Origin: Thermanaeromonas sp. C210
GTDB taxonomy: Bacteria > Bacillota > DSM-521 > Neomoorellales > Neomoorellaceae
Reading direction: 5' to 3'
Assembly: GCF_013167955.1 (NCBI RefSeq)
Contig: NZ_BLWF01000001.1
Location: 248,001-312,000 of the forward strand
DNA: 64,000 nucleotides
A program made the translations under genes and the position numbers. The notes beneath the pieces are model-generated. The model was not told the DNA's origin, ran no database searches, and was given only the letters and a program-made list of their open reading frames with translations. This document shows, piece after piece, positions 16,576 to 55,904 of the stretch. The first letter of the stretch is position 1. Each line of letters opens with the position of its first letter.

Positions 16576-18183
16576 CTAGGTCAATTTAAAAACTACATCC
16601 GAGATGGTGTAGTCGCTGCGGAGGTATATTGCTTCAAAAGTTGTGCTCACATAAGTGATTTTTTCTTCATAGGGGAGCTCGTGGATCTTGTCCAGCTTCT
16701 TAGAAATCTTTTCGTAAATCGCGTTCAGCCTGTCCATTAACGTGTCGCTTCTGGCCAACTTTTCGTTAAGGTTCTCCAGTTTTTGCATTAGCAGGTGCCT
16801 TTCTTCCCTCAGCTCGGCTATCCTCTCCCGGTACTCCTCCAGGGTGATAACATCCTCCTCGTAAGCCACCTGCTGTTTTCTCATGGCCTTCTCGATTTGG
16901 TCGAGCCTCTGCCTGACCTTTTCTCTTTCCCCGGCCAGGGCATCCGTGTCCTGATCGAAGATACTGCTCTGCTCCTTTATAGCCTGCATGAGCTTTTCCT
17001 TGTCAGCAAATATACTCTTGAAGAGCTCCATTATGAGGTAATCGACCCTTTCCATATGCCAGTACTTCATAGGCGGGCTGCACTTGCCATTTGTTCCCAT
17101 GCAACGGTAATAATAGAGATATTTGCCCTCCGCTTTTTTCCCTTTGACCCTTTTGGGGTAGCGGAAGCCGAATATTTTCCCCCCGCACTCAGCACACCGC
17201 AAGATGCTAGAACCCAAGTACTTACGGTCGCATGTCCACTCTTTGGTGTCCTTTTCCCGCCTCCTCTGCATTATCTGCTGGACCTTTTCGAACTCTTCCG
17301 GGGTAATTAAAGGTTCGTGAGTGCCCTCCCGGATTATCCACTCCTCCTTTGGCCGCATTACTTGCTTCTGCTTACCGGACGAGTCCCTGACCCTGGTAGT
17401 AGTATTATAAATCGTTATCCCCAGGTAAACAGGATTGGAAAGTATGGTCTTTATAGCGTTGCTGCACCATTTGCACCCGCGCTTGCTCGGTATCCCTAAC
17501 TGGTTAAGGTATTTGGCGATTTTGGCCTGGCCCCATCCTTCCAGAAACTTCTCGACTATCAGCCGGTAAATGGGGGCCGTATCTTCGTTCACAACCAGGT
17601 GCTGGCCGTCCTCGCTCAGCTTGTAGCCGTAAGCAGGATCGGGCACATTGGTCTTGCCCTCTTTAGCTTTGATGATTTGGGTCACTTTCACCCTGCTGGC
17701 AGTCGTCTTGCGCTCCTTCTGCGCCAGGGCGGCGTGCAGGACCAGCAGAAATTCGTCGTCGTCCGTGCGGCTGTCATAGTTCTCCTTAATGGAAATGAAG
17801 AAGGCACCGTAGTACGTTATCTCCCTCTTAAGTTCCAGTATATCCATTACGTCCCTGCTGGTCCGCGATATTTCCTTGGTGACCACTCCCTTAATTCTGC
17901 CCAGGCGTATATCCTCCCTTAGCTGGTTCATCTCGTCCCGCAGGTAGGCGTACTCGCCTGACTTCACGTCGATATAGAACCGGACCAGGTTGTAGCCGTT
18001 GACCTCAGCCCATTGCGAGAGCAGCTTTTTCTGGTTTTCAATGCTGGAGAGCTGGCTGTCCTTACGGGTGGAGATCCTTATATAGCCGCCGATGTTCACC
18101 CCCTTTTGCTCTAGGGTATCTTTCGGATCGGTGAGGACCTCCAGCCTCCGGCCAGCCACATGGGCAGGCACGAGGGTCCTCAT
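16576..18183 (-). CDS. Large serine recombinase (resolvase/integrase)
   Basis: A 535-residue large serine recombinase. Residues 30-175 are the catalytic domain: GGYIRISTRKDSQLSSIENQ holds the nucleophilic Ser in RIST, and VTKEISRTSRDVMD supplies the conserved Arg residues. About 180-290 is the recombinase domain (AYGYKLSEDGQHLVVNE.. NQLGIPSKRG). LRCAECGGKIFG with YRCMGTNGKC is the zinc ribbon, and a coiled coil follows at about 405-490. Such enzymes integrate and excise mobile elements at unlike att sites and are used by skin-type elements that interrupt sporulation genes. A 47-aa ORF precedes it by 32 bases. Confidence 0.9.
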   Translation of the reverse strand: MRTLVPAHVAGRRLEVLTDPKDTLEQKGVNIGGYIRISTRKDSQLSSIENQKKLLSQWAEVNGYNLVRFYIDVKSGEYAYLRDEMNQLREDIRLGRIKGVVTKEISRTSRDVMDILELKREITYYGAFFISIKENYDSRTDDDEFLLVLHAALAQKERKTTASRVKVTQIIKAKEGKTNVPDPAYGYKLSEDGQHLVVNEDTAPIYRLIVEKFLEGWGQAKIAKYLNQLGIPSKRGCKWCSNAIKTILSNPVYLGITIYNTTTRVRDSSGKQKQVMRPKEEWIIREGTHEPLITPEEFEKVQQIMQRRREKDTKEWTCDRKYLGSSILRCAECGGKIFGFRYPKRVKGKKAEGKYLYYYRCMGTNGKCSPPMKYWHMERVDYLIMELFKSIFADKEKLMQAIKEQSSIFDQDTDALAGEREKVRQRLDQIEKAMRKQQVAYEEDVITLEEYRERIAELREERHLLMQKLENLNEKLARSDTLMDRLNAIYEKISKKLDKIHELPYEEKITYVSTTFEAIYLRSDYTISDVVFKLT

Positions 18184-27594: not shown

Positions 27595-27860
27595 CGTAAC
27601 CCTCCTTTCACGTATCGCCCGCCGACGGCCGGGCAAGCCGTCCCCTTTCGGCAACCCGACCCGGCTGCGTGACCCCCTCGGGCCGCAGCCCACCTCGCTC
27701 CCCGCGGGGCCCACGCAGATCGGGGTTCCGGCTACCACGTGTGGGGCCGCCCGTGCGCCCGGAAAATTACTCTTGAGGGCCCCCGGTTTCTTCGGTAGAA
27801 TAATCGGGAGAGCACGAACGGGGCGGCCCGATTACTTTCTCAAGAAAGGGAGGGCGAATC

Positions 27861-33117: not shown

Positions 33118-33132
33118 TCAGTTGAACCCCCC

Positions 33133-33149
33133 CGATGAAATTTTCATCG
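33133..33149. promoter_or_regulatory. Operator-like palindrome before herA
   Basis: CGATGAAATTTTCATCG has 8-base arms that are perfectly symmetrical around a central T. It lies 16 bases upstream of the HerA start, beside AT-rich DNA (TATAAAAT on the minus strand) that could be the promoter. The site suits a repressor of the operon. Confidence 0.5.
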
Positions 33150-33535
33150 ATATTTTATACCAAAAATTCAAGGGTGGCAAGCCCGCGCCCGGCGCGTCGT
33201 CGACGCAATCGACCTCTACCGTGGGTGTAGCTATCGGCGGCACAAAAAAAGAGAGACACGCCGCGCTTTCGGCCGGGCCGACGCGGTCTCTCCTCTGGCT
33301 CATCACGAGAGGGCCGGTAGGCCAACCGATAAAGAGGCGGGTCGGCCCGCCGACCGCGCCCGCACGGGGCCACCGTAAAGCGCCGAGAGATTTCGGCTTT
33401 TTGCCCGTCGGGCGAGACCGTACGCGCGGGCGAACCGGCGGTAGGCCGCGTGGCAGCTTCATCGAAGCCCCCGACCTCCTTTTTCTCCCCCCGCCCGGGC
33501 CCTCTGGCCTAATCCCGGCGCGTCGGGGGCCCGGA
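33150..33535. other. Gene-free stretch between GHKL ATPase and HerA genes
   Basis: No gene recognised in about 385 bases. It holds the terminator at 33244-33292 and a further GC hairpin near 33342-33358 (GGTCGGC..GCCGACC). Confidence 0.5.
33244..33292 (-). terminator. Minus-strand terminator after the GHKL ATPase gene
   Basis: On the minus strand GAGAGACCGCG pairs with CGCGGCGTGTCTCTC (one bulge), followed by TTTTTTT. It separates the GHKL gene from the HerA operon. Confidence 0.75.
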
Positions 33536-35545
33536 TCAGCCCGGCGACGCGGCCCCGGCCGCGGCCTCGGAGCAGCCCGGCCGCAGCGCCTGCAGTCGCT
33601 CGTCGTCCGGGGCGCGCAATCTCAAGACCTCCAGAAATTCCTCCCATTGGGCCGCGGCGCGGGCGAGCAGCGTCTCCCATTCCATAGCCCACATTCCGCT
33701 TGACGATAGGTCCTGTAACTTAGATAAGATGTCCGGCTTCTTGCTTAGCCCGTCGGCGATCAGGTAGCCGTTTGCAAACTTGAACGGCCCTCCGGTATCG
33801 GCTGCCAGCTTCGCTCTTACCGCGCGAACGTACCGCTCGAATCGGAAAATATGATCCCAATCCGCGGTCAGGCCAGGGCGCATGAATTCGACGATTGCCA
33901 GTTGGTCGCCGCTGCCCAGCGCCAAGTCTATCCGCCCCTGCCAGTCCTCGTCTGCTTCCATACCCACCTCGGCGGCGACATCCCTGAGAAGCTTCTCTAT
34001 CCGTCTCTCCCGCCTGAAGGTTTGCATCTCCGGGCCGAAAAGCCAGGGGTTGTCGGCAATATAATTTCTTATGTCGGGCTCCTTGTCCCGCCTGGCTATC
34101 CGCTCCTCCAATCCCTTGATGATGAGCAGCTTAGTTTTCACAACCTCCGCCGTATGAAGCGCCGTTAGGACGTTGGCCTCGAGGAGTATTTCCAAAAACC
34201 TCGCCTCGCTCATGTCCGGGCTTTCGGCCAGCTCGCGAATCAGCTCCTTGAGCCTGCCCCCCTCCCAGGCCGTGAGAACGGCCTCGCCGATTTCTTGAAA
34301 CTGCTCGTCGCTTATGGTCGAAATGCGGGCGAGCTTGTTCAGGGCCTGCTTGATAACTTTTTGCTCGCTGCTGGGAAGCCGCGCCAGGCGCCGGGCAAAC
34401 GGCGCCAGCCGTGCCTCTATGGCCTCAAGCCTCTTCTCGGCCCGCCGATCCCTCCAGATCCTTAGGAGGCTCTTGACGCGCTCCCGCCCCCACTCGAGCA
34501 CCAGCTCCGTCTCGGGCAGCTCCCAATTGATCCTCTGCCTCTCGGTTGCGGTCACGTCCGTTGCCAGATCGTCGAGGAAGTCCGCCTCCACCTGGCCGGA
34601 AAGGTATTCCATGCCCTGTTGGCCGCCCAGCCCTCCGACGAGGTTAAAAAAGAAAGGAGTCTGGGCGAGCTTTCCCCGGATGAAGACCGCCACGCCGCGC
34701 AGCTCTTCCTCGTCGATGGGATCTTTGTAGAAGAGAAAGCGCCAGCGGATCTTGCGCTCCCCTAGCGGCTCCTCGCCCCAGCCGGTCTCGGGCTCGATCC
34801 TGATGCCCTCCGGCCTTTGGTCGTCGCGGTAATCCCTCGGAAAGACAAACTCTACCTTCTCCGCGTCCTCGCCTTCCGGAAGCGGCCTGCCGTTGACGAG
34901 CACCTTAAAGTCCGCAACGCGCTGATGAAGGAGGAACCTTCGGGCCATGCTCCTCGCAAACGCGTCGGGGGCGGGTCGCTTTGCCAAGGTCAGGCGCCTC
35001 AGCCTTATGGCCGTCCCGTGTGCCTCCCTTGCGCGGTTTTCGTCCGGCCCCTCGTACTCGATCACCTCTACGTCCGCAGGCGGCGCCACGTAATCGCCGT
35101 CGGACTCCCCGCGCAATTTCGTTATGTCCAGCTCGAAGACCGTTTTTTCGCCGGTTACCTTGCTGACCGTCTCGATGCGGATTACCCCCGCGATTCCGAA
35201 GCCGGCAAACTTGCCTATCCCTTTTCTCCCGAGGAGCGGGCGCTTTTTCTCGAGGGACGTCCCGCCGTCCTTTTGCCTGCGATCGTACCCTACCTTCAGG
35301 TACCTCTCTTGGCAATCCTCGAACGTCATGCCAATGCCGTTATCTCTGATCACGATCTCGGCCTCCGGACCCAGCTCGGCCGGTAGGGCAACCGACACTT
35401 CCTCGGCGTCCGCGTCCCAGGCATTGGCTATCAGCTCGGCGATCGCCGCTACGGGGCTCTGGTACATTTGTATGCCGAGGTGATCGATGATCCGCCCGTG
35501 GAAGCTCAGGCGCAGTCTCTTGGCCTCTTCGCTCACGGAAGTCAC
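33536..35545 (-). CDS. GHKL (Hsp90/MORC-like) ATPase fused to a PD-(D/E)XK-like C-terminal domain
   Basis: A 669-residue protein. Residues 30-120 are a Bergerat-fold ATP site: PVAAIAELIANAWDADA (N box), IVIRDNGIGMTFED (G1) and LGRKGIGKFAGFGIAG (G2). A transducer-like region follows (FFFNLVGGLGGQQGMEYLSG), then a helical linker (about 340-500). About 500-640 resembles the C-terminal nuclease part of Shedu/DUF4263-type proteins: YIADNPWLFGPEMQTFRRER, RIDLALGSGDQLAIVEFMRP. The Asp and Glu of a D..ExK site are present, but the lysine position reads Met-Arg. Family knowledge: MORC/MutL-like ATPases occur in bacterial restriction and conflict systems. Catalysis is uncertain. It has its own terminator and follows a 47-aa ORF. 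Confidence 0.8.
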   Translation of the reverse strand: MTSVSEEAKRLRLSFHGRIIDHLGIQMYQSPVAAIAELIANAWDADAEEVSVALPAELGPEAEIVIRDNGIGMTFEDCQERYLKVGYDRRQKDGGTSLEKKRPLLGRKGIGKFAGFGIAGVIRIETVSKVTGEKTVFELDITKLRGESDGDYVAPPADVEVIEYEGPDENRAREAHGTAIRLRRLTLAKRPAPDAFARSMARRFLLHQRVADFKVLVNGRPLPEGEDAEKVEFVFPRDYRDDQRPEGIRIEPETGWGEEPLGERKIRWRFLFYKDPIDEEELRGVAVFIRGKLAQTPFFFNLVGGLGGQQGMEYLSGQVEADFLDDLATDVTATERQRINWELPETELVLEWGRERVKSLLRIWRDRRAEKRLEAIEARLAPFARRLARLPSSEQKVIKQALNKLARISTISDEQFQEIGEAVLTAWEGGRLKELIRELAESPDMSEARFLEILLEANVLTALHTAEVVKTKLLIIKGLEERIARRDKEPDIRNYIADNPWLFGPEMQTFRRERRIEKLLRDVAAEVGMEADEDWQGRIDLALGSGDQLAIVEFMRPGLTADWDHIFRFERYVRAVRAKLAADTGGPFKFANGYLIADGLSKKPDILSKLQDLSSSGMWAMEWETLLARAAAQWEEFLEVLRLRAPDDERLQALRPGCSEAAAGAASPG

Positions 35546-42415: not shown

Positions 42416-43358
42416 TCACTTGAAGTAGTCAGTGGGGTTGACGGGCTGCTGGTGGACTCTGACCTCAAAGTGCAGGTGCGGCCCGGTGGACTTCCCTGTA
42501 GACCCGACGTAGCCGATAAGTTCACCGGCCTGGACCACCTGGCCCCTTTTGACTGCAATCCCGGCGAGGTGGGCGTATATTGTCTCCACCCCTCCCTCGT
42601 GCTGGAGGAACACCGCCAGGCCGTAGTTGCCTGCTCGCCCGGCGTGGGCAACCACACCGGGGGCAGCAGCCACGACGGGCGTCCCCTGGGGAGCTCCTAT
42701 GTCCACCCCCGTATGGAAGCCGTCAATGCCCTCCACGAGGTCTATCCGGGGGCCAAAACCTGAAGTAATAACGTAGACACCAGGCACGGGCCACTTGAGG
42801 TCCTTCTCTACCGGCACCCATCCCGGCGGCACTTCCGCGCCCACTTCCAGGAGGAAGGACAGGTCCACGGTAAGGATATTCCTTACCTTCTCCTGCTGCG
42901 CTTCAGTGAATCCCAAGTCATTTAGGACCTCGCCGAGGTCCCTCAACCTGTAGGTAGGGTAACTCTGTCAGGTGGGCGGGTCCTTGCCCGTGCATACCCG
43001 ATATGTTCCATTTTGCTCTATGAACACTCCTGGCGAGCTCCCTGGCCCTGGCGGGGGTTGCCTTCCGGAAGTCCGGGTTTAGCCTTGCGGCCTCAATAGC
43101 CAAAAGCGGCTGCCATTCGATTTTAACGCCTGGGTCACACGGGGATTTTGTGCTTTCGCTCGCCTCCCTGGCCGCATCAACATAGATTTGCACTTGCGAG
43201 GGACTGGCTATGGGCACCCTCTCCCATATAACAATTGGCCCTGCAAAGAGCAGGGCCAGAAGAGCAAGCGGTAGAATTAGTATTATCACCGTCCAAAGGA
43301 GCACTCTCTCCGCCTCCAGCAGTAGGGCGCCAGCTATTTTAGCTATTAGTCTAGCCAC
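42416..43358 (-). pseudogene. Membrane-anchored M23 peptidase of the conjugation module, frameshifted
   Basis: It starts at GTG 43358, overlapping the VirB4 stop. The N-terminal part has a membrane segment (VLLWTVIILILPLALLALLF) and a muramidase-like stretch (KIEWQPLLAIEAARLNPDFR). Near 42960 the frame shifts by one base into PTYRLRDLGEVLNDLGFTEA, and the M23 domain follows: GFHTGVDIGAPQGTPVVAAA, IYAHL and GPHLHFEVRVHQQPVNP (HxGxDxxxP and HxH zinc motifs). It should open the cell wall for the transfer channel. The C-terminal part alone is still an open frame of 176 residues. Confidence 0.75.
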
Positions 43359-45160
43359 TACTGGCCACCTCCTGCCAGGTAGGGTATCTCGTACGGCGCA
43401 GCCTCAATCCGTACATGCACCCTCTGGGTCCCGGCAACGAGAAGGCCTTCGCCTCGCTTGGCAGTGGCCAGCAAATCCCTCTCGGCTTCGCTCAAGTTCA
43501 TAAGTTGGGTTATAGCCTCCAGGTCCTTCTCGCCCTGGCCAGGCTCGCCCTGGCCAGGAGGAGCTTATATGTCGGGTTATCGAGGAGGGCCTGGCCGTGG
43601 CGCTGCACCTCAGGGGCCAGGAAGTCAATCACGTTCTGGGTTATGACCACCAGACCCCCCATGTATTTGCGGATCCTCTTGCTGGTGTCCCTCAAGAAGG
43701 CCAGGGCCTGGGGCGTCTGGGGGTCCACCAAGAGCCAGGCCTCGTCCACCACCAGCAGGGTCCTCTCCTGTCGGTCCCGCTCGATTAAGTCCCAAGCGAA
43801 GGAGAGCACATTAAAGTATTGCGCCCTCCTCACTGAGTCGTCGGCGTTTGTCGTGGACGTCTAAGACTATTAAGTCGTTGTCGGCACTGGCCGTAGTAGG
43901 CCCGGCCCACAGGGCGGCGTCCGCACCCAGGGCCGCCTTTTTTAACAACACCGCCAGCCTGGAATAAGTCTCGGGCAGCTTCTCTGCCTGTTCAGCTACA
44001 TAGGTGTGGAGTTCCCTCATGGTGGGCCATTCTTCTGCCGGTATAGAATCAGGGTCCGTCTCCCAAGTAATGCCCGCCCGGCGGTACACTTCCACCAGAG
44101 CGTCCTCCAAAGCGGCCTTCTCCAAGTCCACAAGGTCCCGGAGGTAAAGGGAGAAGAAGGTGCGGAGGGTCTGGAGGTGCAGGGCCAGGGGGCCCTGGCC
44201 GGACCTCGCGTCCCCTTCTCCATCCTCCTCTAGGGGGACGGGTCTCACCTGGAGGGGGTTAATCCTCCCCTTGCCGCCGGCGCAGTTTATCCAGGTGCCA
44301 CCTAAGAGGCGGCACATCTCCCGGTACTCGCGCTCGGGTTCGATTATTATCACCTTGGAGCCCTGGGCCAAGTTGCGGAGAGCCAAAAGCTTCACGGCAA
44401 AGGATTTACCTGCACCGGGCTTGGCCAGCACCGTCCAATTGGAGTTAGTGCGGTCTCCTCCCCTCTCCCATGTATCCACCAGAACCAAGCCGCCGTCCCT
44501 GTCCCTCCCCAGCACTACACCACTGCCGTCGTTAATACCGCTGGCCGTAAAGGGAAAACCGGCCGCCACTGTCTCGGCGGGCATATTTCTCGCCCCGGCT
44601 TCTTTGGTATCCTTAGGAAGTATTGCCCAGGGCCCTACGGCCTTAAGGCCTTCTTCCTGGCGGAAGGTGGCGGTCCTGGCCCGCATTCCTGCCGCGGCTA
44701 GAGTGGCCTCCACCTGGCGGGTCCTCCGCTCCAGGGTCTCCTGGTCGGGAGCCAGCACTAGGAGCACTACCGTAACGTAGAACACCTGCTGCTGCTCCTG
44801 GTCTATCTTCCTCAGCAGCTCTTGGGCGTCCTTTAAGGCCTGCTCCGTTCTTTGCATGACCAGGGCGTTGCCGCCCATCTCAAGCCTAGCTGCATATTCG
44901 CCTATGGCCTTGTTTATGCTCAAGATTAACTCGGTAGGGTCAGTGGGTGTTACATGAACCGAGCACACCACGCCTGGTATGGCGGCCACCCGGGCCAGCC
45001 AGGCAGGGCCCACCTTGGGGGGATAGTTCGTCACCACCAGGACCCTTGCAAGCTGGTCGCCAAAGGTGACCTGCCTAGCCCCGAACTCCAGTGCCTAAGG
45101 GGCCAGGATATCTAGTAAACCGGAAACGCCTGCCGTTTGAGGTTGTGTTTTGGTCTTCAT
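43358..45160 (-). pseudogene. virB4: VirB4/TraC-type conjugation ATPase, multiply disrupted
   Basis: ATG 45160 begins KTKTQPQTAGVSGLLDILAP, then an in-frame TAG (45096-45098), then ALEFGARQVTFGDQLARVLV. Walker A is TVLAKPGAGKSFAVKLLALR and IIIEPEREYREMCRLLGG follows. Near 43850 the frame shifts to ADDSVRRAQYFNVLSF and LLVVDEAWLLVDPQTPQALA (Walker B), VVITQNVIDF. Near 43560 it shifts again to GQGEKDLEAITQLMNLSEAE; there a 15-bp tandem duplication and a lost G are visible. VirB4 powers assembly of type IV secretion channels. Three independent lesions mean this copy is dead. Confidence 0.85.
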
Positions 45161-45424
45161 GTAACGGACCCCCTTGTACCTCTGGGGATTACTTAGGACG
45201 GTTGATATACCGCATATATGCTATAGTCGGAATATAGATGGTGAATCCTTTACAATGCCGGGAGAGATAAAATAGATGGGCGATGTCCGGCGGCACCTCG
45301 AGCAAAACCTGGGTAAGCCCGAGTTCTGCTATGTAAGCGTCAAATACAACCCACCTTGCGGGTTACGGCAGTAAGCATAAAAGAAACCCCTACCTAATCA
45401 CCTAAGGTAGGGGCTAAAGCAAAC

Positions 45425-46999
45425 CTAATTATTCATCCGGCAAATAGGGGGCAAAGTTTCCGACCACGGCAGGAGTTGTTCCAATGCCTCTTCATCTTGC
45501 GGGTCCAGGTTGGGTAGCCTCTCAAAGAGATAAGCAAGGTAGTAGAAGGGATTTAACCCGTTCTCCTTGGCTGTCTCTATAATGCTGTAAACAATAGCGC
45601 TGGCTTTAGCACCCCGAGGGGTGTTGGCAAATAACCAGTTCTTGCGCCCAATAACAAAGGGTTTTATAGAACGCTCGCTGCGGTTGTTATCGAGTTCCAA
45701 ACGCCCGTCTTGTAAAAAGGCGACAAGTTTCTCCCATTGGCTAAGGCAATAGTAAACCGCCTGCCCAAAGGCACTTTTGGGCAGCACCTGCGCTTTCTGC
45801 TTCTTAAGCCATGCTAAAAATTCGTCCAGCTCTGGTTTGCTGCGCTCCTGGCGGATTTGATACCGTTCTTCCGGGGTTTTGTCTTTAAGCTCGCTCTCTA
45901 TGGCAAAGAGCCGGTTGCAGAACTTAAGCCCCTCCCGGGCAGCCACTGCTTTGTTGCGTTTATCTTGCGGCAGGGCTTTTAAGGCTTCGTCGAACTTGCG
46001 CCGGGCATGAGCCCAGCAGCCTACCAGGGTGACATCCACAAGCTCATGGTAGCCGGCATAGCCGTCAACGTGTAAATAGCCCTTAAAACCTTTCAGGAAC
46101 CGGCGGGGGTGTTTGCCGGCCCGGGTGGTCTGGTAGTCGTAGAGGATAATCGGGGGACCGTCCCGCCCGGTACGGTAAAGCCAAAGGAATGATTTGGTGG
46201 TAGCTTCCCTTCCCGGTTCATGAAGTACCTGCAACGTGGTCTCATCGGCATGGAGAATGTCTCTTTTAAGAAGGTGTTCATGGAGACGGTCGTAAATAAG
46301 GGTTAAGTAGGTGTTAGCTCCATGGAGCACCCAGTTGGCCATGGTCTGCCGGGAAAGGTCTATCCCTAAGCTTTTAAACTGCTGCTCCTGGCGGTAAAGG
46401 GGTAATCCTGCCCCGTATTTCTGGGTCATAATGTAGCTAAGAAGCGAGGGAGATACCGGGCTTCCCGGAAGTACAGGAGCAGGCATGGGCGCCGTGATAA
46501 CAGGAGTGGTTATCTCTTCTTTCTCGCAGCGGCGGCAAGAATAGACGTAGCGCACGTGCTTGACCACTTTCACTTGGGCCGGGATAATTTTGAGCTCCTG
46601 CCGCACTTCGGTGCTCATTTCATGTAAAGGGCCACCGCAGCACGGGCAGACCCGCTCCTCTTCCGGCAGGCGGTGCTCTACTACTTCTACCGGCAGCTCT
46701 TCCAGGTTCATCTCCCGGCGGCCGCGCGTTTTACGGCGCTGGTAGGTGATGGTCTCCAAATCCGGTTCAACTGCTTCCGGCCGGGCTTCCGCTTCCGCCT
46801 CATTAAAAAGCAAAAGCTGCTCTTCTAGTGCGCAAGTCCTCTCGCTGGAAGAACCGAATTGCCGCTTCTTGCTTAAACGGAACTGCTCCATAAACCAGTT
46901 TAACTTGGCGGTAAGTTCGGCAACCTGTTGTTCCAATTGAGCACAGTGCTCTCGCAGCTCTTCTATGGTCATGGTAGCTATAGACTTAGCCGTGTCCAT
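45425..46999 (-). CDS. tnpC: IS66 transposase TnpC
   Basis: A 524-residue DDE transposase. An N-terminal leucine-zipper region ([22 protein letters not shown]) is followed by the zinc-binding [18 protein letters not shown] motif. The catalytic core has [13 protein letters not shown] and [11 protein letters not shown] (Asp residues), and [20 protein letters not shown] has the Glu. Full length. Its last 72 residues recur as a fragment at 39.8 kb. Confidence 0.95.
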
Positions 47000-47079
47000 G
47001 CTTTAATAATTCGACGAATCAGCCCCAATTCCTCTAGAATCAACCATAAGGTAAAAATATTTCTTCCTGAGGCTTTATA

Positions 47080-47436
47080 TTACAAGATGGTGCGCGCTTT
47101 TACCTCAGGATGGGCTTTAGGCTGGTTTAAGGGAAGACCATCAAGCAGCCAGCGCAGCTCCCGGCGGCTTATGGTGATGGTAGAAGAAGTATTTCCCACC
47201 GGCCATATGAATTTGCCCTTCTCCAGCCGGCGGTAATAAAGCCAAAACCCGTTGTGCTCCCAATGGAGAATCTTCAGTTTGTCCCTCTTACGGTTGCAAA
47301 AGACAAAGAGGCAGGAAGAGAAGGGGTCCAGCTCGAAGCCTTCCTTGACCAGCACCGCCAGGCCGTCAATAGATTTACGCAAGTCTGTGGCGCCGCAGGC
47401 GAGGTAAACCCGGTCGATACCAACTTCGTTTAGCAT
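47080..47436 (-). CDS. tnpB: IS66 TnpB protein
   Basis: A 118-residue IS66 Orf2 protein: VYLACGATDLRKSIDGLAVL, FVFCNRKRDKLKILHWEHNG and FWLYYRRLEKGKFIWP are its hallmark segments. Needed for IS66 transposition; its mechanism is unclear. It overlaps tnpA by 7 bases. Confidence 0.93.
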   Translation of the reverse strand: MLNEVGIDRVYLACGATDLRKSIDGLAVLVKEGFELDPFSSCLFVFCNRKRDKLKILHWEHNGFWLYYRRLEKGKFIWPVGNTSSTITISRRELRWLLDGLPLNQPKAHPEVKARTIL

Positions 47437-47756
47437 AACGCTATCAGCACCCGGACTACCTGGGTGAGCAAGGCCGGGTCAAACCCGGGTCTTACCTCGA
47501 TGCTGGTCTTGCCTATCCTGACCAGCAAGGAGTTGCCCCCATCCCCAGAAGATGACTCGCTTATTTCTACCGGCAGCCAACGGGTTGGCTTCTCGAGGGA
47601 AACTCCGTTTTGGTCTTTATACTTCCGCAGCCAGTACCATAACTGCCTGGGGCTAATGCCCTCATGGGAGGCGCACCATTCTTTAACGCTTTGCCCGCTC
47701 GCTTGGTATTCGGCTATCCGGGTTTCCCATAACTTTTGCCGTTCGGCTCTGGTCAT
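47430..47756 (-). CDS. tnpA: IS66 TnpA-like helix-turn-helix protein
   Basis: A 108-residue protein. The N-terminal part RIAEYQASGQSVKEWCASHE GISPRQLWYWLRKYK is a helix-turn-helix, and the C-terminal strand-rich part LLVRIGKTSIEVRPGFDPAL matches IS66 accessory Orf1 proteins. First gene of the element. Confidence 0.88.
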   Translation of the reverse strand: MTRAERQKLWETRIAEYQASGQSVKEWCASHEGISPRQLWYWLRKYKDQNGVSLEKPTRWLPVEISESSSGDGGNSLLVRIGKTSIEVRPGFDPALLTQVVRVLIALC

Positions 47757-47973
47757 AATAAAAAATCCTCCTCAAGCGTATTTTCTGAGAAGGATTATCC
47801 CCTGTACTTGGGGTTGGTGCCAAGGTGGGTTGTATTTGACGCTTACTCTGCTATGCCTACACCCTTATGAAGGGACTCAATATCCCTTATTTGCTCCGTA
47901 ACACACTGTGTGGGAGGCCCTGATATGGTCTAAAGAACACCAATTTAGGACTTGTAGGGACACATTGTCAAGG

Positions 47974-48081
47974 GTGAAGCAGGTGGAAGCCTTTAAGGAG
48001 TGCCAGGGGGTGTTTACCTCTGAGGAATACTCGGAATTCAAAACTTTAAATTCCGGCAGGAAAATTGTCGTCGATGTCTAA
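47974..48081 (+). CDS. 35-residue ORF before the CRISPR array
   Basis: GTG start; the frame reads KQVEAFKECQGVFTSEEYSE then FKTLNSGRKIVVDV. It resembles part of the 63-aa ORF on the other side of the array (ALRECSGIFSPGEYPEFKDQ). Its stop overlaps the next ATG (ATGTCTAA). No known family. Confidence 0.4.
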   Translation: MKQVEAFKECQGVFTSEEYSEFKTLNSGRKIVVDV

Positions 48082-48280
48082 TAATGCAAAAAGACTGGGG
48101 GATCGACGACAAGCTATCAGAAGAAGAAATCCACATCTGAAGCCGGATAAAGGGCTTAAACTTTTTCGTGTGGAAAATAGTACCATCGAGGAGGACGAAA
48201 TTATTTCGTTAATTTATGCGCCCAAAATGGGTTTCCAGCCTACCTACGAGGGATTGAAACAGGAAAAGGAGGTGGCTTGA
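48074..48280 (+). CDS. Basic small ORF running into the first CRISPR repeat
   Basis: ATG overlaps the stop of the preceding ORF. It reads SNNAKRLGDRRQAIRRRNPH then LKPDKGLKLFRVENSTIEED and EIISLIYAPKMG, and only then enters repeat 1 and stops in spacer 1. The part before the array may be a real gene truncated by the array, or simply leader DNA. Low confidence. Confidence 0.25.
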   Translation: MSNNAKRLGDRRQAIRRRNPHLKPDKGLKLFRVENSTIEEDEIISLIYAPKMGFQPTYEGLKQEKEVA

Positions 48281-50588
48281 TGGGGGTTTGCGGAGGTTTC
48301 CAGCCTACCTACGAGGGATTGAAACCGGAGCAGGCTCTGGACATAAGCAGACGCCGAAACGGTTTCCAGCCTACCTACGAGGGATTGAAACTTTTTCCTC
48401 CTTTTTCCCGCGCCTTGCCCCCGCGCGGGTTTCCAGCCTACCTACGAGGGATTGAAACCTGGGATAAGGCTCCCAGCGGGCTATTTTTTTTTGAGTTTCC
48501 AGCCTACCTACGAGGGATTGAAACCGCCTGCTGGAGCAATTTAAGGTAATCCAACGGGCTAAGTTTCCAGCCTACCTACGAGGGATTGAAACCTTATAGC
48601 CCTCTCCGGGGCGTTCCCAAATCTGGCTGTTTCCAGCCTACCTACGAGGGATTGAAACGTTGATCGGGGAACATTATGAAGAAGGCGAATGGAAGTTTCC
48701 AGCCTACCTACGAGGGATTGAAACAGCGTTAGTGCGGTTATAGATGAATCTCTAATTTTTGTTTCCAGCCTACCTACGAGGGATTGAAACCCCGCCCAGC
48801 AGATTTCAGGTTTCAGAACCCAGATTGTTTCCAGCCTACCTACGAGGGATTGAAACCAGATTAATCATTTCGCTCATCTCTTTCCTTGCCAGGTTTCCAG
48901 CCTACCTACGAGGGATTGAAACTTAAACTAAAGCATATTTCTATACCACTATCGTCATAGTTTCCAGCCTACCTACGAGGGATTGAAACTGTTTCAAGGC
49001 TTGCAGGCATTGCTACTGTCGAAAATCGTTTCCAGCCTACCTACGAGGGATTGAAACCAACCAGCACTGGGTTGCTAAGGTGTGGCCCAGTGGGTTTCCA
49101 GCCTACCTACGAGGGATTGAAACCCTGTAACCCGATACGTATACCGGGAAGGGCTAGTAGTTTCCAGCCTACCTACGAGGGATTGAAACATTGGGCCGGA
49201 TTAAAGGCTCCGGCGGGCCGTATTTGGGGGTTTCCAGCCTACCTACGAGGGATTGAAACTCGTACCGAGGAACAAGTTCATACCAGAGATATAAGTTTCC
49301 AGCCTACCTACGAGGGATTGAAACCTAATACAGCAAGTGCGTTTTCATCGCCTAGTTCCGTTTCCAGCCTACCTACGAGGGATTGAAACTATAATTCTTC
49401 ATAAGCACCCGCACGACGGGTGCCGTTTCCAGCCTACCTACGAGGGATTGAAACCATTAAAAAAGCTTTCAAGAAAGCATTAAGAAAAGCGTTTCCAGCC
49501 TACCTACGAGGGATTGAAACGCTCCTACTCTTCAAACATATCCAGGATCAAGTTTAGGTTTCCAGCCTACCTACGAGGGATTGAAACAACTTTATTTTAG
49601 ACAAACTTACGCCAGAACAACGTGTTTCCAGCCTACCTACGAGGGATTGAAACGCTGATCGGGGAGCATTATGAAGAAGGCGAATGGAAAGTTTCCAGCC
49701 TACCTACGAGGGATTGAAACACCACCGGAGGCAATACGCCACCAGGATTTTTGGCAGGTTTCCAGCCTACCTACGAGGGATTGAAACGCGGGAAAGTGGC
49801 CATGATTGACACCGAACGTGGAAGCGTTTCCAGCCTACCTACGAGGGATTGAAACATTTCAATGCTTTGGATTTGAGCTTTTACCATACTAGTTTCCAGC
49901 CTACCTACGAGGGATTGAAACCGTATCAAGGCATTGCTGGCATTGCTACTGTTGAAGTTTCCAGCCTACCTACGAGGGATTGAAACGCCCTAGCATTTCT
50001 GCATGTACCAATGTACATAGATGTTTCCAGCCTACCTACGAGGGATTGAAACTACACCTTCGTCCCCTATGGGGGTAAAAACCCCATAGGGTTTCCAGCC
50101 TACCTACGAGGGATTGAAACGCAGCCTCCGCCGCCCGGCGCTCGGCCTCCGCCAGCGCGTTTCCAGCCTACCTACGAGGGATTGAAACTCTAAAGCCCCT
50201 TTAACGATGACCTCGTAATATTTTGTTTCCAGCCTACCTACGAGGGATTGAAACGTCGTGGCACCTTGGGGGAACTGGAGGAAGGCACAGGTTTCCAGCC
50301 TACCTACGAGGGATTGAAACCCCTTGCGGTTGAGCAGTACCTCCAATCTAGCCCCATCCGTTTCCAGCCTACCTACGAGGGATTGAAACTCAAAAGGAAC
50401 TATGAACGTGGGTTGTGGAACAAGCGTTTCCAGCCTACCTACGAGGGATTGAAACTACAGCCTGCCCAACTCGTATCCTCCTCCTTGTCGCGTTTCCAGC
50501 CTACCTACGAGGGATTGAAACCCGCAGCCAGAATAATCCCCTGTCAAGGGAAAAACCTGTTTCCAGCCTACCTACGAGGGATTGAAAC
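48231..50588 (+). CRISPR. CRISPR array, 36 repeats and 35 spacers, no cas genes nearby
   Basis: The 30-base repeat starts GTTTCCAGCCTACC and ends TACGAGGGATTGAAAC and is identical in all 36 copies I located. The 35 spacers are 35-40 bases long. The repeat end ATTGAAAC is typical of type I-A/I-B/III arrays and suggests transcription on the plus strand, so the leader should lie at about 48080-48230 (moderately AT-rich). No degenerate terminal repeat is seen at either end. No cas gene is present in the window, so the array must use Cas proteins encoded elsewhere or be silent. It is placed between conjugation genes. Confidence 0.98.
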
Positions 50589-50673
50589 TCATAACAGCCT
50601 GGCTCAAGTCGGAGAAGTGCCTGGACCTTCAGCCCCATGAGGGGCCGCAGTAAAACACCTTGGAGGCTCTGAC

Positions 50674-50865
50674 ATGTCGAAGAAGACCAAACCCCCGAAA
50701 ACAGGCTTCCAGCCCAGCCAGGCGAAAGCCCTCAGGGAGTGTTCAGGGATATTTTCTCCTGGCGAATATCCAGAATTTAAGGACCAGGAGAGCATCGAAG
50801 CCGGGGTAAGAAGCTTACGACGGGAAGTAGATAAAAGGCTGGCTCAGTGGTTGAAAGAAAGATAG
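50674..50865 (+). CDS. 63-residue ORF after the CRISPR array
   Basis: ATG behind CTTGGAGG. It reads KKTKPPKTGFQPSQAKALRE then CSGIFSPGEYPEFKDQESIE and VDKRLAQWLKER. The central part resembles the 35-aa ORF on the other side of the array. The charged helical C-terminus and clean ribosome site support a real gene; no family was recognised. Its end overlaps the endonuclease gene on the other strand. Confidence 0.5.
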   Translation: MSKKTKPPKTGFQPSQAKALRECSGIFSPGEYPEFKDQESIEAGVRSLRREVDKRLAQWLKER

Positions 50866-51276
50866 TAACACCCTCTGTCTCAGAAGTAGGTGGGGATCCT
50901 CAATTCTATCTTTTTCTGGGTCCTGCTCATCAGATGATAAGAAACTAACCTCTATGCCGCGGCCGCTCAATATAAGCTTAGTCTTCATGTCTTCTCTTAT
51001 GCCGCCTCCGGCAAAAACAATTATTGTAGGTATAGGGCAGGCCAGGCAATCTTCCAGGGCATAACTCAACTTTTGATATGCGGTCCCCGAACTCTCCTGA
51101 AGCTTGGCTTCTATGCCCATGTACCTGCCGCCGTGACGTAACACAATATCCAGTACCCGTGGCGTACCTACAAACCTGTAGCCCACAGGTTTTTCCTTCA
51201 AAACCTCAATGTCCTCGCCCCAAGAGTTTATATACCTAATGATGGCATCCCGAAAACGAGCATCTCTAGGTGGCAT
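50815..51276 (-). CDS. PD-(D/E)XK restriction endonuclease candidate, partner of Dam-type methylase
   Basis: A 153-residue protein. FVGTPRVLDIVLRHGGRYMG IEAKLQESSGTAYQKL gives the order D..E-A-K of a PD-(D/E)XK nuclease core, followed by AYQKL, CPIPTIIVFAGGG and a basic tail. It begins 15 bases after the stop of a Dam-family adenine methylase on the same strand. A short PD-(D/E)XK protein beside an orphan methylase is the usual look of a type II restriction-modification pair. The specificity and activity are inference. Confidence 0.65.
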   Translation of the reverse strand: MPPRDARFRDAIIRYINSWGEDIEVLKEKPVGYRFVGTPRVLDIVLRHGGRYMGIEAKLQESSGTAYQKLSYALEDCLACPIPTIIVFAGGGIREDMKTKLILSGRGIEVSFLSSDEQDPEKDRIEDPHLLLRQRVLLSFFQPLSQPFIYFPS

Positions 51277-51291
51277 TAACGTCAGCCGTCC

Positions 51292-52134
51292 TCACCGGTA
51301 ATTTCTAATAACTAGTTCTGTTATTGGTCCTCTCCGGTCAGGCCTGCAGTTTATGGCCCTCCTGGCGTAGACCACCCGGATATCGTATCCCGAATAAAGC
51401 TCACGTATGAAGGGCGTATCCGAATTGCTCAGCATCACCAGACAGCCACTTCTGTCCAGTTCCCGGAATACGACCGCCAATCTCTTCTGGTCCTCCGGCC
51501 CGAAAGCGTCCGGAGTGTAGCCCGTAAAGTTGGCCGTATCGGATAAGGGGTAATAGGGAGGGTCGAAATATACAAAGGCACCAGGCCGGGCGAACTCCAG
51601 CACGCGGCTAAAGTCGCCGCAGATTATCTGGGCATGTTTCAAAGCCTCGGCTACCGCCCGGAGGTTGGGCTCGTCTACAATCTTGGGATTCTTATATCTC
51701 CCAAAGGGCACGTTATGCTTACCCTGGCTGTTTACCCTCCACAGCCCATTATAAGCCGTCTTGTTGAGATAAAGGAACCGGGAGGCCCTCTCCACGGGCG
51801 AAAGCTCCTCGGGATCTAAGGCGCGGACGGAGTAGTAATATTCCCGCGTGTTCTTGTGCTTTCTGAGGTCCCTTAGCAGTTCCTCCAGGTTGTCTCGCAC
51901 CACCAGGTAAAAGTTGATAAGCTCCTCGTTGCTATCGATAAGGATAGCCTGGTGGGGCAGCAGGTGGAAAAATACCGCCCCGCCCCCCACGAAGGGTTCT
52001 ATGTAAAGGTTATATTCCTTCTTAGGAAACAGTGGCTCAAGTTGAGGTATAAGTTGAGCCTTACCCCCTGCCCACTTTACAGGAGGCTTGGGCCTTAGTG
52101 CGTGAGGCGATAATGAAGAAGATTGATCTAACAC
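51292..52134 (-). CDS. Dam/DpnM-family DNA adenine methyltransferase
   Basis: A 280-residue D12-class N6-adenine methyltransferase: PPVKWAGGKAQLIPQLEPLF (AdoMet motif I), YIEPFVGGGAVFFHLLP, ASRFLYLNKTAYNGLWRVNS and GAFVYFDPPYYPLSDTANFT (catalytic DPPY). VMLSNSDTPFIRELY follows. The family usually methylates GATC or related sites. It is followed by a likely endonuclease gene, and the pair lies as cargo between the TraC-like and VirB4 genes. Confidence 0.9.
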   Translation of the reverse strand: MLDQSSSLSPHALRPKPPVKWAGGKAQLIPQLEPLFPKKEYNLYIEPFVGGGAVFFHLLPHQAILIDSNEELINFYLVVRDNLEELLRDLRKHKNTREYYYSVRALDPEELSPVERASRFLYLNKTAYNGLWRVNSQGKHNVPFGRYKNPKIVDEPNLRAVAEALKHAQIICGDFSRVLEFARPGAFVYFDPPYYPLSDTANFTGYTPDAFGPEDQKRLAVVFRELDRSGCLVMLSNSDTPFIRELYSGYDIRVVYARRAINCRPDRRGPITELVIRNYR

Positions 52135-52196: not shown

Positions 52197-52829
52197 TTAC
52201 ACCGCTCCCAACAGGGGTGGCAGGTACGGCCCCGCCAGTGCAGGGGGCCGCTCGAAGGCCGCCTGGGCCGGGTGCAAAAAGACAAAGAGCAAATCCATGA
52301 TCTCCTGCTCCTCGCATATAGTCACCTTGAGTCCTGCCCGCTCAAGATTAGAAGCCAGCTCGTGCGCCCTCTGTAGTACTTCCTCCCTTTCCTTCCCAGG
52401 AAGGAGGAGGTAGTACCTTCTCTCTAGTGCCTCCCCGGTGGAAACTAAGGCACTGACGTAATGAATATATTCCTGGAGGAGCTTTCTCCTGATAAAGCTG
52501 GTAGTCTCCCTGGCTTTTTCCTGTAATTCCCTTAAGTAAGCGTCCAGGTCCACCGGCCTGCCAAGGGACACAATCTGGAAGGGCTCCTTAAGCCCGTTTA
52601 TGGCCTCGAAGACGGCGGTGATGATGCGCTTCTTCTCCGTCTCGCTCTTCAGGGAAAGGTTGAAAGGTTCCACTCTTAGAATTGCTGCAACCTGAGCGTC
52701 CTTCCTCACCAGGACTCCCCCTGCAATATCTTTAAAGGGCAGCCATTCCTGGACGGCCTTCCTGGCCTCTTCCTGGGTTGCCTGTTTCTTCTTGGTGGCC
52801 TCCTTTTTGCCTGGAAATTTGAGCATCAC
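52197..52829 (-). CDS. TraC-like conjugation protein (VirB4 N-terminal type)
   Basis: A 210-residue soluble protein. EWLPFKDIAGGVLVRKDAQV and AAILRVEPFNLSLKSETEKKRIITAVFEAINGLKEPFQIVSLGRPVDLDAYLREL resemble the N-terminal domain of VirB4/TraC ATPases, which in Gram-positive integrative elements is often a separate gene directly before VirB4. Here VirB4 is 7 kb away, behind the cargo. The ATG overlaps the end region of the PrgI-like gene. The frame is intact. Confidence 0.65.
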   Translation of the reverse strand: MMLKFPGKKEATKKKQATQEEARKAVQEWLPFKDIAGGVLVRKDAQVAAILRVEPFNLSLKSETEKKRIITAVFEAINGLKEPFQIVSLGRPVDLDAYLRELQEKARETTSFIRRKLLQEYIHYVSALVSTGEALERRYYLLLPGKEREEVLQRAHELASNLERAGLKVTICEEQEIMDLLFVFLHPAQAAFERPPALAGPYLPPLLGAV

Positions 52830-52833
52830 AGTA

Positions 52834-53122
52834 TCACTCTCCCCTGGTGACGTAGAAGTATCGTTTCTGGCTGCTCTTCCACCCTCGCCAAAGTTTGATT
52901 AAGCCGTCCAAGCTCTGGCCGTCCGGCCCCGGCCTGGTGACGAAGTAGGCCAGGAGGAATAATGAAGAAGACTGCCCGGAAAAAAGACTCGGTAAAAAGG
53001 CCTGCTAGAAAGTAAAGCGGGAGCCCCAATATAGCTCCTCCCACCACGCTCACGAGCTCGAACCAGCCGAAGCCGGGGAAGAACTTAAACCTCGCCTTAA
53101 CATTCCTGGGTATAAGGTACAC
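52834..53122 (-). pseudogene. PrgI-family (VirB3-like) membrane protein, frameshifted
   Basis: It begins MYLIPRNVKARFKFFPGFGW then ELVSVVGGAILGLPLYFLAG, with two membrane helices and the P-R-N-V/K-x-K lead of PrgI proteins. Near 52925 a one-base loss moves the true C-terminus to the next frame: YFVTRPGPDGQSLDGLIKLW RGWKSSQKRYFYV, which ends in TGA at 52834. It would be a component of the type IV secretion inner-membrane complex. Confidence 0.65.
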
Positions 53123-53348
53123 CCTTATCGCCCCCTAAACCCTCGTGAACATCCTCCGCATAATGTACCAGGTGCCCGCGGTCTGTACCGTATGTCCCAT
53201 AGCAGAACCCAGGCCGGAGTGGTAGGCGAACTGGCGCAGGACCGCCGGGGTCTTGAAGGCCACCCAGAGCCAGCCGATCAGAAGAAAGGGCTTCAAAATA
53301 TCTACGCCGAAGGTTATGGTCATCACCGTGGCCAGGAACCCCTTGATT

Positions 53349-53418
53349 AGAAAGACTTGCACGGCCTGGGAGGCTGAGAGCACCACGAGTTCCCTCCACC
53401 ATACCGCCGCCACTCCCT
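53349..53418. repeat. 70-bp target duplication, left copy
   Basis: Identical to 55307-55376. It starts AGAAAGACTTGCACGGCCTG and ends GCCGCCACTCCCT, directly outside the left inverted end of the IS. Confidence 0.95.
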
Positions 53419-55306
53419 CCTGACTTTATCAGATGAGAATCTAGAAGTCGCATAAAATCTAGGAAGATAGAAACCAAGGCGTGCATTTTGCCACTACGCC
53501 TGGCCCTGCCAGCGAGAAGCAAACTCTTCTACACGAGTGATATTGGCAGGGGGAGCGATTCGCATCAGGCGCAGGATCTTTTTGCTTAACTCTGTACCCT
53601 TGGTCTTAATAAAGAAGGTTTCTCCTTCGATTTCCACCTCGGCAAAGTTGAGGGAGTTTAACGCTTCCCGGATCTCTACCGGCGAGGCGTTTTCTCCAGC
53701 TTGCCGGAGCTTGGATTCCAGGGTGCGTTCGAGAAGAAAGGCCAGGAAACAGATTACAAAGTGCCCCTTAATCCGCCTTTCGGTCCAATGGAAAACCGGT
53801 CGTACTTCCAGGGTGCTTTTCATGACGCGGAAGGATTCTTCAATCCGCCACAGGTTGTGGTAAGCATCCAGAATGTCTTTGGCGCTCATCTCTTTCTCGT
53901 TGGTCTGGATGCCGTAGTAGCCGTCAAATTGTTGGTCCCAGTTAATTGCTTCTTCGTCCAGCACCCAGGTGCCGGTACAATCTACTTCTTTGAGGTATTT
54001 CTTGCCGCCGCGTTTATTGCTGGCCCGGATTTTAGCCTTGCTTTCTAAAAGGCTTTGGGCCTTCTCGATTAACCTTTCCCGGTCGGACCGGTCTTTCTCC
54101 GCCCGCCGGCTGGAGTAGGTGACGATCAGTTTTTCGGGTAATTGGTATTTTTCTCCTTCAGCGGTGAACTCGTTTATGTATTCGATAACCTTGTAGCGAA
54201 GGACTTCTCCTTCTTCGTCGTCCTTGATCTCCTGATAGCCGTCTTCGTCCAGGATCATATCGGTAATCTCTTTCTTCATCTTCTTAATGCGGGCGGCAAA
54301 AATGTAGCTGTAGTTACGTTCTACTATGCGCTTTAAATTGAGCTTGCTGTTAATCCCCCGGTCCGCCACGATAATTACCCGGCGCAGGCCAAAACGTTTT
54401 TCCAGCTTTTCTAAGGCTGCTTCCAGGGTTTTACCGTCAAAGGTATTGCCGGGGAAAAGCTCATAGCCTATGGGCCGACCTTCGCAATCAATAAGTAAAC
54501 CCAGTACCACCTGGACTTCGTTGTACTTGCCGTCTTTACTGAAGCCAAAATCTCGTAAAGTATCGGCTTTGACGCTGGCAAAGGAAAAGGTCGTTACGTC
54601 GTAAAATACCACATCTACTTTCATGTTGAAAAGGTGGCGGTTCTTCCGGAACATCTCTTCTTCCAGCAATTCTTTGTGCTCACTGAGTAAATCCAGGGAG
54701 CGATAGAGGTGGTTCAAAGCCACGTCGGGCAAACTGGCATAACGTTGCTGGTGGTTGTAGGTGCCCAGTTTGCTCCTGGGCTCAAGGAGGTGCTGGACGA
54801 CCATCAGAAAACTCGCGTCACTTAAGCTGAATTGGACCTTGTGTTTGGCACTAATCTCTTTCAGCAGTTCGGGTAGTTCAAATTGGTTCCAGATCTTCCG
54901 GTAGACCACATAACCCCAGTTCTTGATCTGCGCCTCAGAGAAGTTCGCTAAACTGGTCACCTCCCTGGCCTTGGACAATTCTAAAAGGCGCTTTCCCAAT
55001 CTTTGAAAGCTGGGGTTGTTTTCAATCTCATCCAGGCGGCCGAGATTTAAAAGGACCTTGTGTTTGACAACACCGTTTTCCCGGTAAGACCGAACCAACT
55101 GAACGTACTGGTGGTCCCTAGATTTAGTTATCTTGATGAACATGTTTTTATGATACCACTATTTACACCTATTGTCTAGCTATATAACCATTATTACCGC
55201 TAATGTTGCCACTACACTTTTCGCTTTCTGACCGGCTTTGAGCCCGCAAACCTAGATTTTATGCGGGTCCCTGTTTCCAAAACGAGTTGTAACTGATAAA
55301 GTCAGG
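53419..55306 (-). mobile_element. IS1634-family element with a 70-bp target duplication
   Basis: The ends are CCTGACTTTATCAG and its perfect complement, the element is 1,888 bp with one transposase gene, and the flanks carry an identical 70-bp direct repeat. Very long target duplications are known for some IS1634-family members such as IS1549. The element differs in sequence from the IS at 13.2 kb. Confidence 0.93.
53494..55143 (-). CDS. IS1634-family transposase (second type)
   Basis: A 549-residue DDE transposase. MFIKITKSRDHQYVQLVRSY starts it, DVVFYDVTTFSFASVKADTL has the first catalytic Asp, RRVIIVADRGINSKLNLKRI the second, and ILDAYHNLWRIEESFRVMKS the Glu block. The frame is intact. 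Only distant similarity to the transposase at 13.4 kb is visible. Confidence 0.92.
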   Translation of the reverse strand: MFIKITKSRDHQYVQLVRSYRENGVVKHKVLLNLGRLDEIENNPSFQRLGKRLLELSKAREVTSLANFSEAQIKNWGYVVYRKIWNQFELPELLKEISAKHKVQFSLSDASFLMVVQHLLEPRSKLGTYNHQQRYASLPDVALNHLYRSLDLLSEHKELLEEEMFRKNRHLFNMKVDVVFYDVTTFSFASVKADTLRDFGFSKDGKYNEVQVVLGLLIDCEGRPIGYELFPGNTFDGKTLEAALEKLEKRFGLRRVIIVADRGINSKLNLKRIVERNYSYIFAARIKKMKKEITDMILDEDGYQEIKDDEEGEVLRYKVIEYINEFTAEGEKYQLPEKLIVTYSSRRAEKDRSDRERLIEKAQSLLESKAKIRASNKRGGKKYLKEVDCTGTWVLDEEAINWDQQFDGYYGIQTNEKEMSAKDILDAYHNLWRIEESFRVMKSTLEVRPVFHWTERRIKGHFVICFLAFLLERTLESKLRQAGENASPVEIREALNSLNFAEVEIEGETFFIKTKGTELSKKILRLMRIAPPANITRVEEFASRWQGQA

Positions 55307-55376
55307 AGAAAGACTTGCACGGCCTGGGAGGCTGAGAGCACCACGAGTTCCCTCCACCATACCGCCGCCACTCCCT
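55307..55376. repeat. 70-bp target duplication, right copy
   Basis: Identical to 53349-53418 and directly outside the right inverted end of the IS, within the VirB6-like gene. Confidence 0.95.
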
Positions 55377-55904
55377 CGTCGGCGCGGGTCAGGCCCACGG
55401 CCATGACCGTGCCGACAGCCGCCAAGAGGGCCACCTCCACCGAGCGTATACCCATCTGGATAAGGTTCAAAGCCCAGATAAGGATGGCGATCAGGGAGGT
55501 AATTATTGTCAGGAAAGGCGCCGTGGCAGTAAAAGTTATGATGGTATCCAGGGGCGACGATGGCTGCCCTACAGAACCCAGGTGGGCCACACTATCGGCC
55601 AGGGCGGGGCCCCAGAGATAAACGTTTTTCACCGTCCAGGGCCCGGCCCCTATGGCCGCCGCGGCAAAGGCGGTACGCTTTAGAAGACCTCCGGGGTCGG
55701 CCCCGGGGTCGCCGCCGAGATAGAGCACATAGGAGCGCGTAGCCTCTACACCCACCTTCAGGGCCAAGAGGTTCCCGGCCAAGGCCTGGACCAGCCTTAT
55801 GGCGTTCTGCACGTAAACCGAATCGAGGATCGGCGTGGCCAGGGCCATCTCGTTCCCGGCGAACTGGGCAAAGGTGGTAAGGGCATTTTCAAAAATCGGA
55901 CAGG

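What the first reader, a model, noticed from the sequence alone, without database searches (positions are those of the whole stretch)
48231..50588. Orphan CRISPR array carried inside a conjugation module
36 identical repeats lie between the TraC-like gene and VirB4 of a decayed integrative conjugative element, with a Dam-type R-M pair on one side and an IS66 on the other. No cas gene is in the window. The array may have moved with the element and use host Cas proteins, so the element could carry immunity against rival elements and phages.
Basis: partly seen in the sequence, partly recalled or inferred. Interest (0 to 1): 0.7.

Follow-up and report, generated by a model that had tools for sequence, protein, structure and literature searches.

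The report
Cas-less CRISPR array in dead conjugative element
A complete bacterial immune-memory array (a CRISPR array with its control region but no cas genes beside it) sits inside the remains of a self-transferring DNA element and probably borrows the cell's own CRISPR proteins encoded elsewhere in the genome; this is a good example of a known phenomenon rather than a new system.

Summary
In detail: 36 identical 30-nt repeats and 35 spacers (48231-50588), between traC-like and virB4 genes of a decayed conjugation module. A D12 methylase/nuclease pair lies on one side and an IS66 with an 8-bp target duplication on the other. No cas gene was found in the window.

The array does not look like a relic. 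It has a full leader (48053-48230) with a 44-nt dyad that precedes arrays of the same repeat family in many bacteria. Of 112 leaders compared, the nearest is the host's own type I-B locus (contig C3; repeat 27/30 identical). Service in trans by host Cas proteins is therefore likely.

Relatives with the same gene order have no array there, only a vapBC-like pair or nothing. An intact related ICE in another family (G243) carries a cas-less array with the same leader; two close relatives of that ICE lack it at that slot.

Target evidence is thin: one spacer of 35 matches a phage tail-fibre gene (32/36, all differences synonymous). Nothing shows rival ICEs or plasmids as targets. This copy lacks relaxase and coupling-protein genes, so it probably cannot move. 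It is a new member of a known kind.

The parts
48231..50588 (+). CRISPR array: 36 identical 30-nt repeats GTTTCCAGCCTACCTACGAGGGATTGAAAC, 35 spacers of 35-40 nt; read left to right from the leader
48053..48230 (+). leader, about 178 bp, homologous to the leader of the host's I-B array on contig C3 (from the dyad on 79%, after the dyad 76% identical)
48067..48110 (+). 44-nt leader dyad GTCGTCGATGTCTAATAATGCAAAAAGACTGGGGGATCGACGAC, 120 nt before the first repeat; 0 expected by chance in the window
47911..48040 (+). left remnant of a vapB-like antitoxin gene (decayed, internal deletion, stops) ending at the leader
50659..50865 (+). right remnant of a vapB-like gene (63-aa ORF 50674-50865; central part missing, C-terminal part kept)
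45333..47846 (-). IS66 element with 8-bp target duplication TCTGCTAT (45325-45332 and 47847-47854); further copies on C3
43811..45160 (-). virB4 pseudogene: ATG at 45160, TAG at codon 22, shorter than in relatives (450 codons against about 600)
52197..52829 (-). traC-like gene of the T4SS operon
51292..52134 (-). D12-class (Dam-type) adenine methyltransferase
50815..51276 (-). PD-(D/E)XK nuclease-like protein, possible restriction partner (pairing inferred)
52826..53122 (-). prgI-like gene
53135..53413 (-). detached distal part of trbL
53494..55143 (-). DDE_Tnp_1 transposase of an IS interrupting trbL
55252..55848 (-). trbL, proximal part
42416..43358 (-). M23-peptidase-type T4SS gene, in two frames (42416-42946 and 42918-43358)
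16576..18183 (-). large serine recombinase, candidate integrase of the element (30% identical to the one near the G243 element)

Best explanation
A cas-less subtype I-B-like CRISPR array with its complete leader was inserted as cargo into the variable slot between traC and virB4 of an ICE, at a vapB-like gene; the ICE has since decayed in place. Shown: array, leader, slot, decay, and a host I-B cas locus on another contig with a related repeat and the most similar leader. Inferred: the host's Cas6 cuts the array transcript in the conserved ATTGAAAC 3' part of the repeat, the Cas8b/Cas7 complex with Cas3 uses these crRNAs against invading DNA, and Cas1/Cas4 (with Cas2) can add spacers at this leader. 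At least one spacer points at a phage tail-fibre gene. The array may have entered the slot by ICE transfer from a related host or by copying from the host's own I-B array.
For: 36 identical repeats with no degenerate last copy. Leader dyad at the usual distance (120 nt; mostly 95-160 nt in 91 other arrays). The nearest of 112 leaders is the host C3 leader, 76% after the dyad against a 45% median, which equals the shuffled level. Host C3 locus with Cas6, Cas8b/Csh1, Csh2, Cas3, Cas4, Cas1b. Relatives with the same gene order and no array in the slot. An independent array in an intact ICE of the same T4SS family, with cas1 on other contigs, absent from that slot in two close relatives. Spacer 8 matches a phage tail-fibre gene 32/36 with synonymous differences only, and a spacer of another genome 33/36, also synonymous.
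Against: The repeat differs from the host I-B repeat at 3 of 30 positions, so recognition by host Cas6 and effector is not proven. No transcription data. A target was found for only 1 of 35 spacers. No strain comparison shows recent spacer gain. Host cas5 and cas2 were not individually identified.
Confidence: 0.62

Rival explanations
1. The array is dead cargo: neither transcribed into usable crRNAs nor extended, and slowly being lost with the element.
For: The surrounding module is decayed; the repeat differs from the cas-linked one at 3 positions.
Against: All 36 repeats are identical and the leader keeps its dyad and repeat-proximal end, whereas the neighbouring genes carry stops and deletions.
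Confidence: 0.22
2. The array is a relic of a chromosomal CRISPR-Cas locus whose cas genes were lost, and the conjugation genes were inserted around it later.
For: Orphan arrays are often read as remnants of decaying systems (PMC9071438 discussion).
Against: trbL-prgI-traC-virB4 order is kept in relatives without any array, and vapB-like sequence lies on both sides of the array; the host I-B cas locus is present elsewhere.
Confidence: 0.05
3. A variant of the best explanation on origin only: the array was seeded from the host's own C3 I-B array after the element was already resident, so the element never carried it between cells.
For: The closest leader known is the host's own; the slot has no array in any relative read.
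Against: The leader differs by about a quarter, the repeat by 3 positions and no spacer is shared, so it is not a recent copy. The related ICE in G243 shows that such arrays do sit in elements with a complete transfer module.
Confidence: 0.4

Closest known systems
Orphan CRISPR arrays on plasmids (NAR 2021, PMC9071438: 207 orphan arrays)
   Same: cas-less array on a mobile element, proposed there to use host Cas machinery in trans
   Different: here an integrated and decayed conjugative element, an array of 36 repeats (orphan arrays are on average shorter than cas-linked ones), and the matching host locus and leader were identified
Virus-borne mini-CRISPR arrays (Medvedeva et al. 2019, PMC6858448; reviewed in PMC11656645)
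   Same: array without cas genes relying on host CRISPR
   Different: mini-arrays hold one or two spacers, mostly against related viruses, with repeats identical to the host's; here 35 spacers, repeat 27/30, no target among related elements found
Campylobacter ICE with a CRISPR-Cas9 system (PMC8743540); type IV systems on Acidithiobacillia ICEs (cited in PMC11656645)
   Same: CRISPR memory on an ICE
   Different: those carry cas genes; this one carries none
Host subtype I-B locus on contig C3 (about 231236-244851)
   Same: leader with the same dyad and repeat-proximal end, repeat of the same family, similar spacer lengths
   Different: 3 repeat positions, all spacers, location

Membership tests
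CRISPR array | identical direct repeats with unique spacers of similar length | tested here: met
   36 of 36 identical, 35 spacers of 35-40 nt; spacers 7 and 22 are variants of one target
CRISPR array | leader at the 5' end | tested here: met
   homologous to the C3 leader; dyad 120 nt upstream
CRISPR array | spacers derived from foreign DNA | tested here: inconclusive
   spacer 8 matches a phage tail-fibre gene; the other 34 are not assigned
Subtype I-B CRISPR-Cas (array served in trans) | I-B cas genes in the same genome with a matching repeat | tested here: met
   Cas8b/Csh1, Csh2, Cas3, Cas4, Cas1b, Cas6 on C3; repeat of the adjacent array 27/30 identical
Subtype I-B CRISPR-Cas (array served in trans) | processing of, and interference with, these crRNAs | not testable with these tools
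   needs RNA or protein experiments
MGE-borne orphan array | no cas genes beside the array | tested here: met
   cas1 only on C2 and C3; no cas family among the window ORFs examined
MGE-borne orphan array | array lies within a mobile element and is absent from the corresponding site of relatives | tested here: met
   relatives with the module and no array
Functional ICE | relaxase, coupling protein, T4SS and integrase present | tested here: not met
   relaxase, VirD4 and pilin not found in the window, virB4 and trbL broken; a serine recombinase is present

The most novel reading that the evidence does not exclude
The 44-nt leader dyad is a portable landing signal recognised by I-B-type adaptation machinery across phyla, so that cas-less arrays carrying it on ICEs, plasmids and phage-plasmids can keep learning in whichever host they enter: a transferable immune memory without its own enzymes.
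Probability: 0.25. Interest if true: 0.65.

Novelty: new member of a known kind. Interest (0 to 1): 0.4.

Why it matters
It gives a concrete, testable case of CRISPR memory stored away from its enzymes in a conjugation module, and a second case in an intact ICE whose close relatives lack the array at that slot. If the leader alone lets a resident system read and extend such arrays, conjugation could spread immune memory separately from cas genes. For this copy the immediate consequence is modest: extra memory for the host's own I-B system.

Tried and rejected
All 35 spacers against the phage and plasmid collections gave only chance-level hits. A BLAST of all spacers against 61 genomes gave one real match, itself a spacer in another genome's array. 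Spacers 7/22, 24 and 33 as exact or codon patterns: no hit for 7/22 in viral contigs or 398 genomes and none for 33. Spacer 24 was found at peptide level in one viral AAA ATPase (GRVAMIDTERGT), but this is a common ATPase motif and was kept as a lead only. No self-targeting in the window or the genome stretches fetched; the rest of the genome was covered only by the BLAST. A first leader pattern had wrong spacing and found nothing. The idea that such arrays are enriched near conjugation modules is not supported: none of 120 leader loci from the genome scan had these T4SS genes within the held flank, and 2 of about 27 modules inspected is near what the number of arrays per genome would give by chance (rough own estimate). 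Two literature searches did not return a description of the leader dyad, but the library is incomplete, so its novelty is open.

Full report
Observation. The array is real and exact: 36 identical 30-nt repeats at 48231-50588, 35 spacers of 35-40 nt. It lies between a traC-like gene (52197-52829, -) and virB4 (43811-45160, -). Beside it are a D12 adenine methyltransferase and a PD-(D/E)XK protein on the right and an IS66 on the left. The IS66 runs from 45333 to 47846 and is flanked by the 8-bp duplication TCTGCTAT (read).

Where the Cas proteins are. The window is part of contig C1 of a 2.68-Mb genome in 19 contigs. cas1 occurs twice, on C2 and C3. The C2 locus is type I-C with an unrelated 37-nt repeat. 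The C3 locus is a type III module (Cas10, Csx10, Csx7 RAMPs) followed by Cas6, a TIGR02221 protein, Cas8b/Csh1, Cas7/Csh2, Cas3, Cas4 and Cas1b, then a 47-repeat array whose repeat GTTTTTAGCCTACCTATGAGGGATTGAAAC differs from the window repeat at 3 of 30 positions. cas2 and cas5 were not identified individually.

The leader. The 178 bp before the first window repeat align with the leader of the C3 array. Both contain the dyad GTCGTCGA-N5-AATAA(T/A)-GCAAAAA-N8-GATCGACGAC and end in TTTATGCGCxCAAAATGG. Of 123 matches, 91 are followed, mostly 95-160 nt downstream, by a repeat of the family GTTTnTAnnCTACCTATnAGGnATTGAAAC; one more 'hit' was a masked stretch of N and is not counted. Of the 31 without a detected array, 18 lie within 250 nt of the end of the held sequence and 13 have room. 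In the window the pattern occurs once, with none expected. Among 112 leaders the closest to the window's is the host C3 leader (76% after the dyad), then a Syntrophomonadaceae leader (61%); the median, 45%, equals shuffled sequence.

The site. In four modules of the same family (G005, G017, G011, G009) the order is trbL-prgI-traC-[small gene on the opposite strand]-virB4; in four others (from G003, G004 and two of G006) traC and virB4 are adjacent; none has an array. The small gene encodes about 91 aa and is vapB-like by context only (no Pfam hit); in G017 it is followed by a PIN-domain protein (PF01850). In the window two decayed copies of this small gene flank the array: left 47911-48040, ending at the leader, and right 50659-50865. 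The conjugation genes are therefore the older layer, and the array, the methylase pair and the IS66 are later. The relatives have a relaxase, VirD4 and pilin; the window has none of these and a broken virB4 and trbL. This copy is unlikely to transfer itself. A serine recombinase at 16576-18183 is a candidate integrase; the ends of the element were not mapped.

An independent case. A survey of traC homologues in 398 genomes of the phylum gave 34 carriers. Of 18 further modules read with about 8 kb on each side, one, G243 (another family), has a 33-repeat array of the same repeat family and the same leader dyad (one mismatch), about 2.3 kb from virB4 in an intact module with MobL relaxase and VirD4. 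Its other neighbour is a protein with an ABC-3C C-terminal domain. G243's cas1 genes are on other contigs. Two relatives of this ICE (VirB4 99% and 95% identical) lack the array at that position: G425 has only 389 bp between the flanks and G423 has other DNA. G425 has a 39-repeat array of this kind elsewhere, beyond the far side of its module; whether that one is inside the element was not settled. G413's contig length equals that of NC_015958.1 (Thermoanaerobacter wiegelii), so G243's family is probably that of Thermoanaerobacter (inference). Short arrays with the dyad and no cas gene among the listed features also sit on Geobacillus and Aneurinibacillus plasmids, one typed conjugative and one with phage tail genes; two of these records were read only in part and the gene tables are incomplete. 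One viral contig (L196) also has an array behind the dyad.

Targets. Spacer 8 differs from a spacer in G048 at three positions, all synonymous in the frame SVSAVIDESLIF. A codon pattern of this peptide found two viral contigs. In L273 the DNA is 32/36 identical with only synonymous differences; both proteins match phage tail-fibre families. The flank 5' of the L273 site is TCA. The spacer has the sense of the gene, so its crRNA would pair with the DNA template strand and not with the mRNA; this fits a DNA-targeting type I effector better than the type III module (inference). Spacers 7 and 22 are variants of one target, differing within LIGEHYEEGEW only at synonymous positions, so the same kind of invader was met twice; it was not found in viral contigs or 398 genomes. 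No spacer matched an ICE or plasmid.

Judgement. The anatomy is certain; use in trans is likely but inferred. Whether the array came with the element or was seeded from the host's I-B locus cannot be decided: the leader is closest to the host's, yet too diverged for a recent copy. Orphan arrays on plasmids and CRISPR systems on ICEs are known (PMC9071438, PMC11656645, PMC8743540), so this is a new member of a known kind. The widely conserved leader dyad is the most interesting by-product; I could not establish whether it has been described.

Noticed in passing
window 48067-48110; L069-L188: A 44-nt leader dyad, roughly GTCGTCGACCTCCAATAGTGCAAAAACCCCTGGGGATCGACGAC, precedes arrays with ATTGAAAC-type repeats in many phyla at a fairly fixed distance.
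   Followed up: partly
L230-L235 (Geobacillus and Aneurinibacillus plasmids): Short arrays with this leader on plasmids, with no cas gene among the listed features; some plasmids have two such arrays on opposite strands.
   Followed up: partly
L240 1296-3445 (G243:C7): Array of about 33 repeats with the same leader in an intact ICE, next to an ABC-3C-domain protein; absent from that slot in two sister ICEs.
   Followed up: yes
G000:C3:244822-264989 (L025, L026): Behind the host I-B array lies a sequence that looks like the start of a group II intron, two IS66 copies and a second 7-repeat array without the dyad leader, possibly the cut-off tail of the first.
   Followed up: no
window 53135-53413 and 55252-55848: Both pieces of trbL on the two sides of the inserted IS contain the stretch AAVWWRELVVLSASQAVQVFL, a duplication much longer than a usual target-site duplication.
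   Followed up: no
window 23674-35545: Cluster of likely defence genes: UvrD-type helicase-nuclease (GajB-like hits), HerA-like ATPase, HATPase protein similar to type II restriction enzymes, endonuclease III-like nicking enzyme.
   Followed up: partly
G048:C15:5023-5058 (L195): A spacer of another genome's array (different repeat) differs from window spacer 8 only at synonymous positions: two hosts hold memory of the same kind of phage tail-fibre gene.
   Followed up: yes
window 21247-22386: Group II intron reverse transcriptase/maturase within the element region.
   Followed up: no
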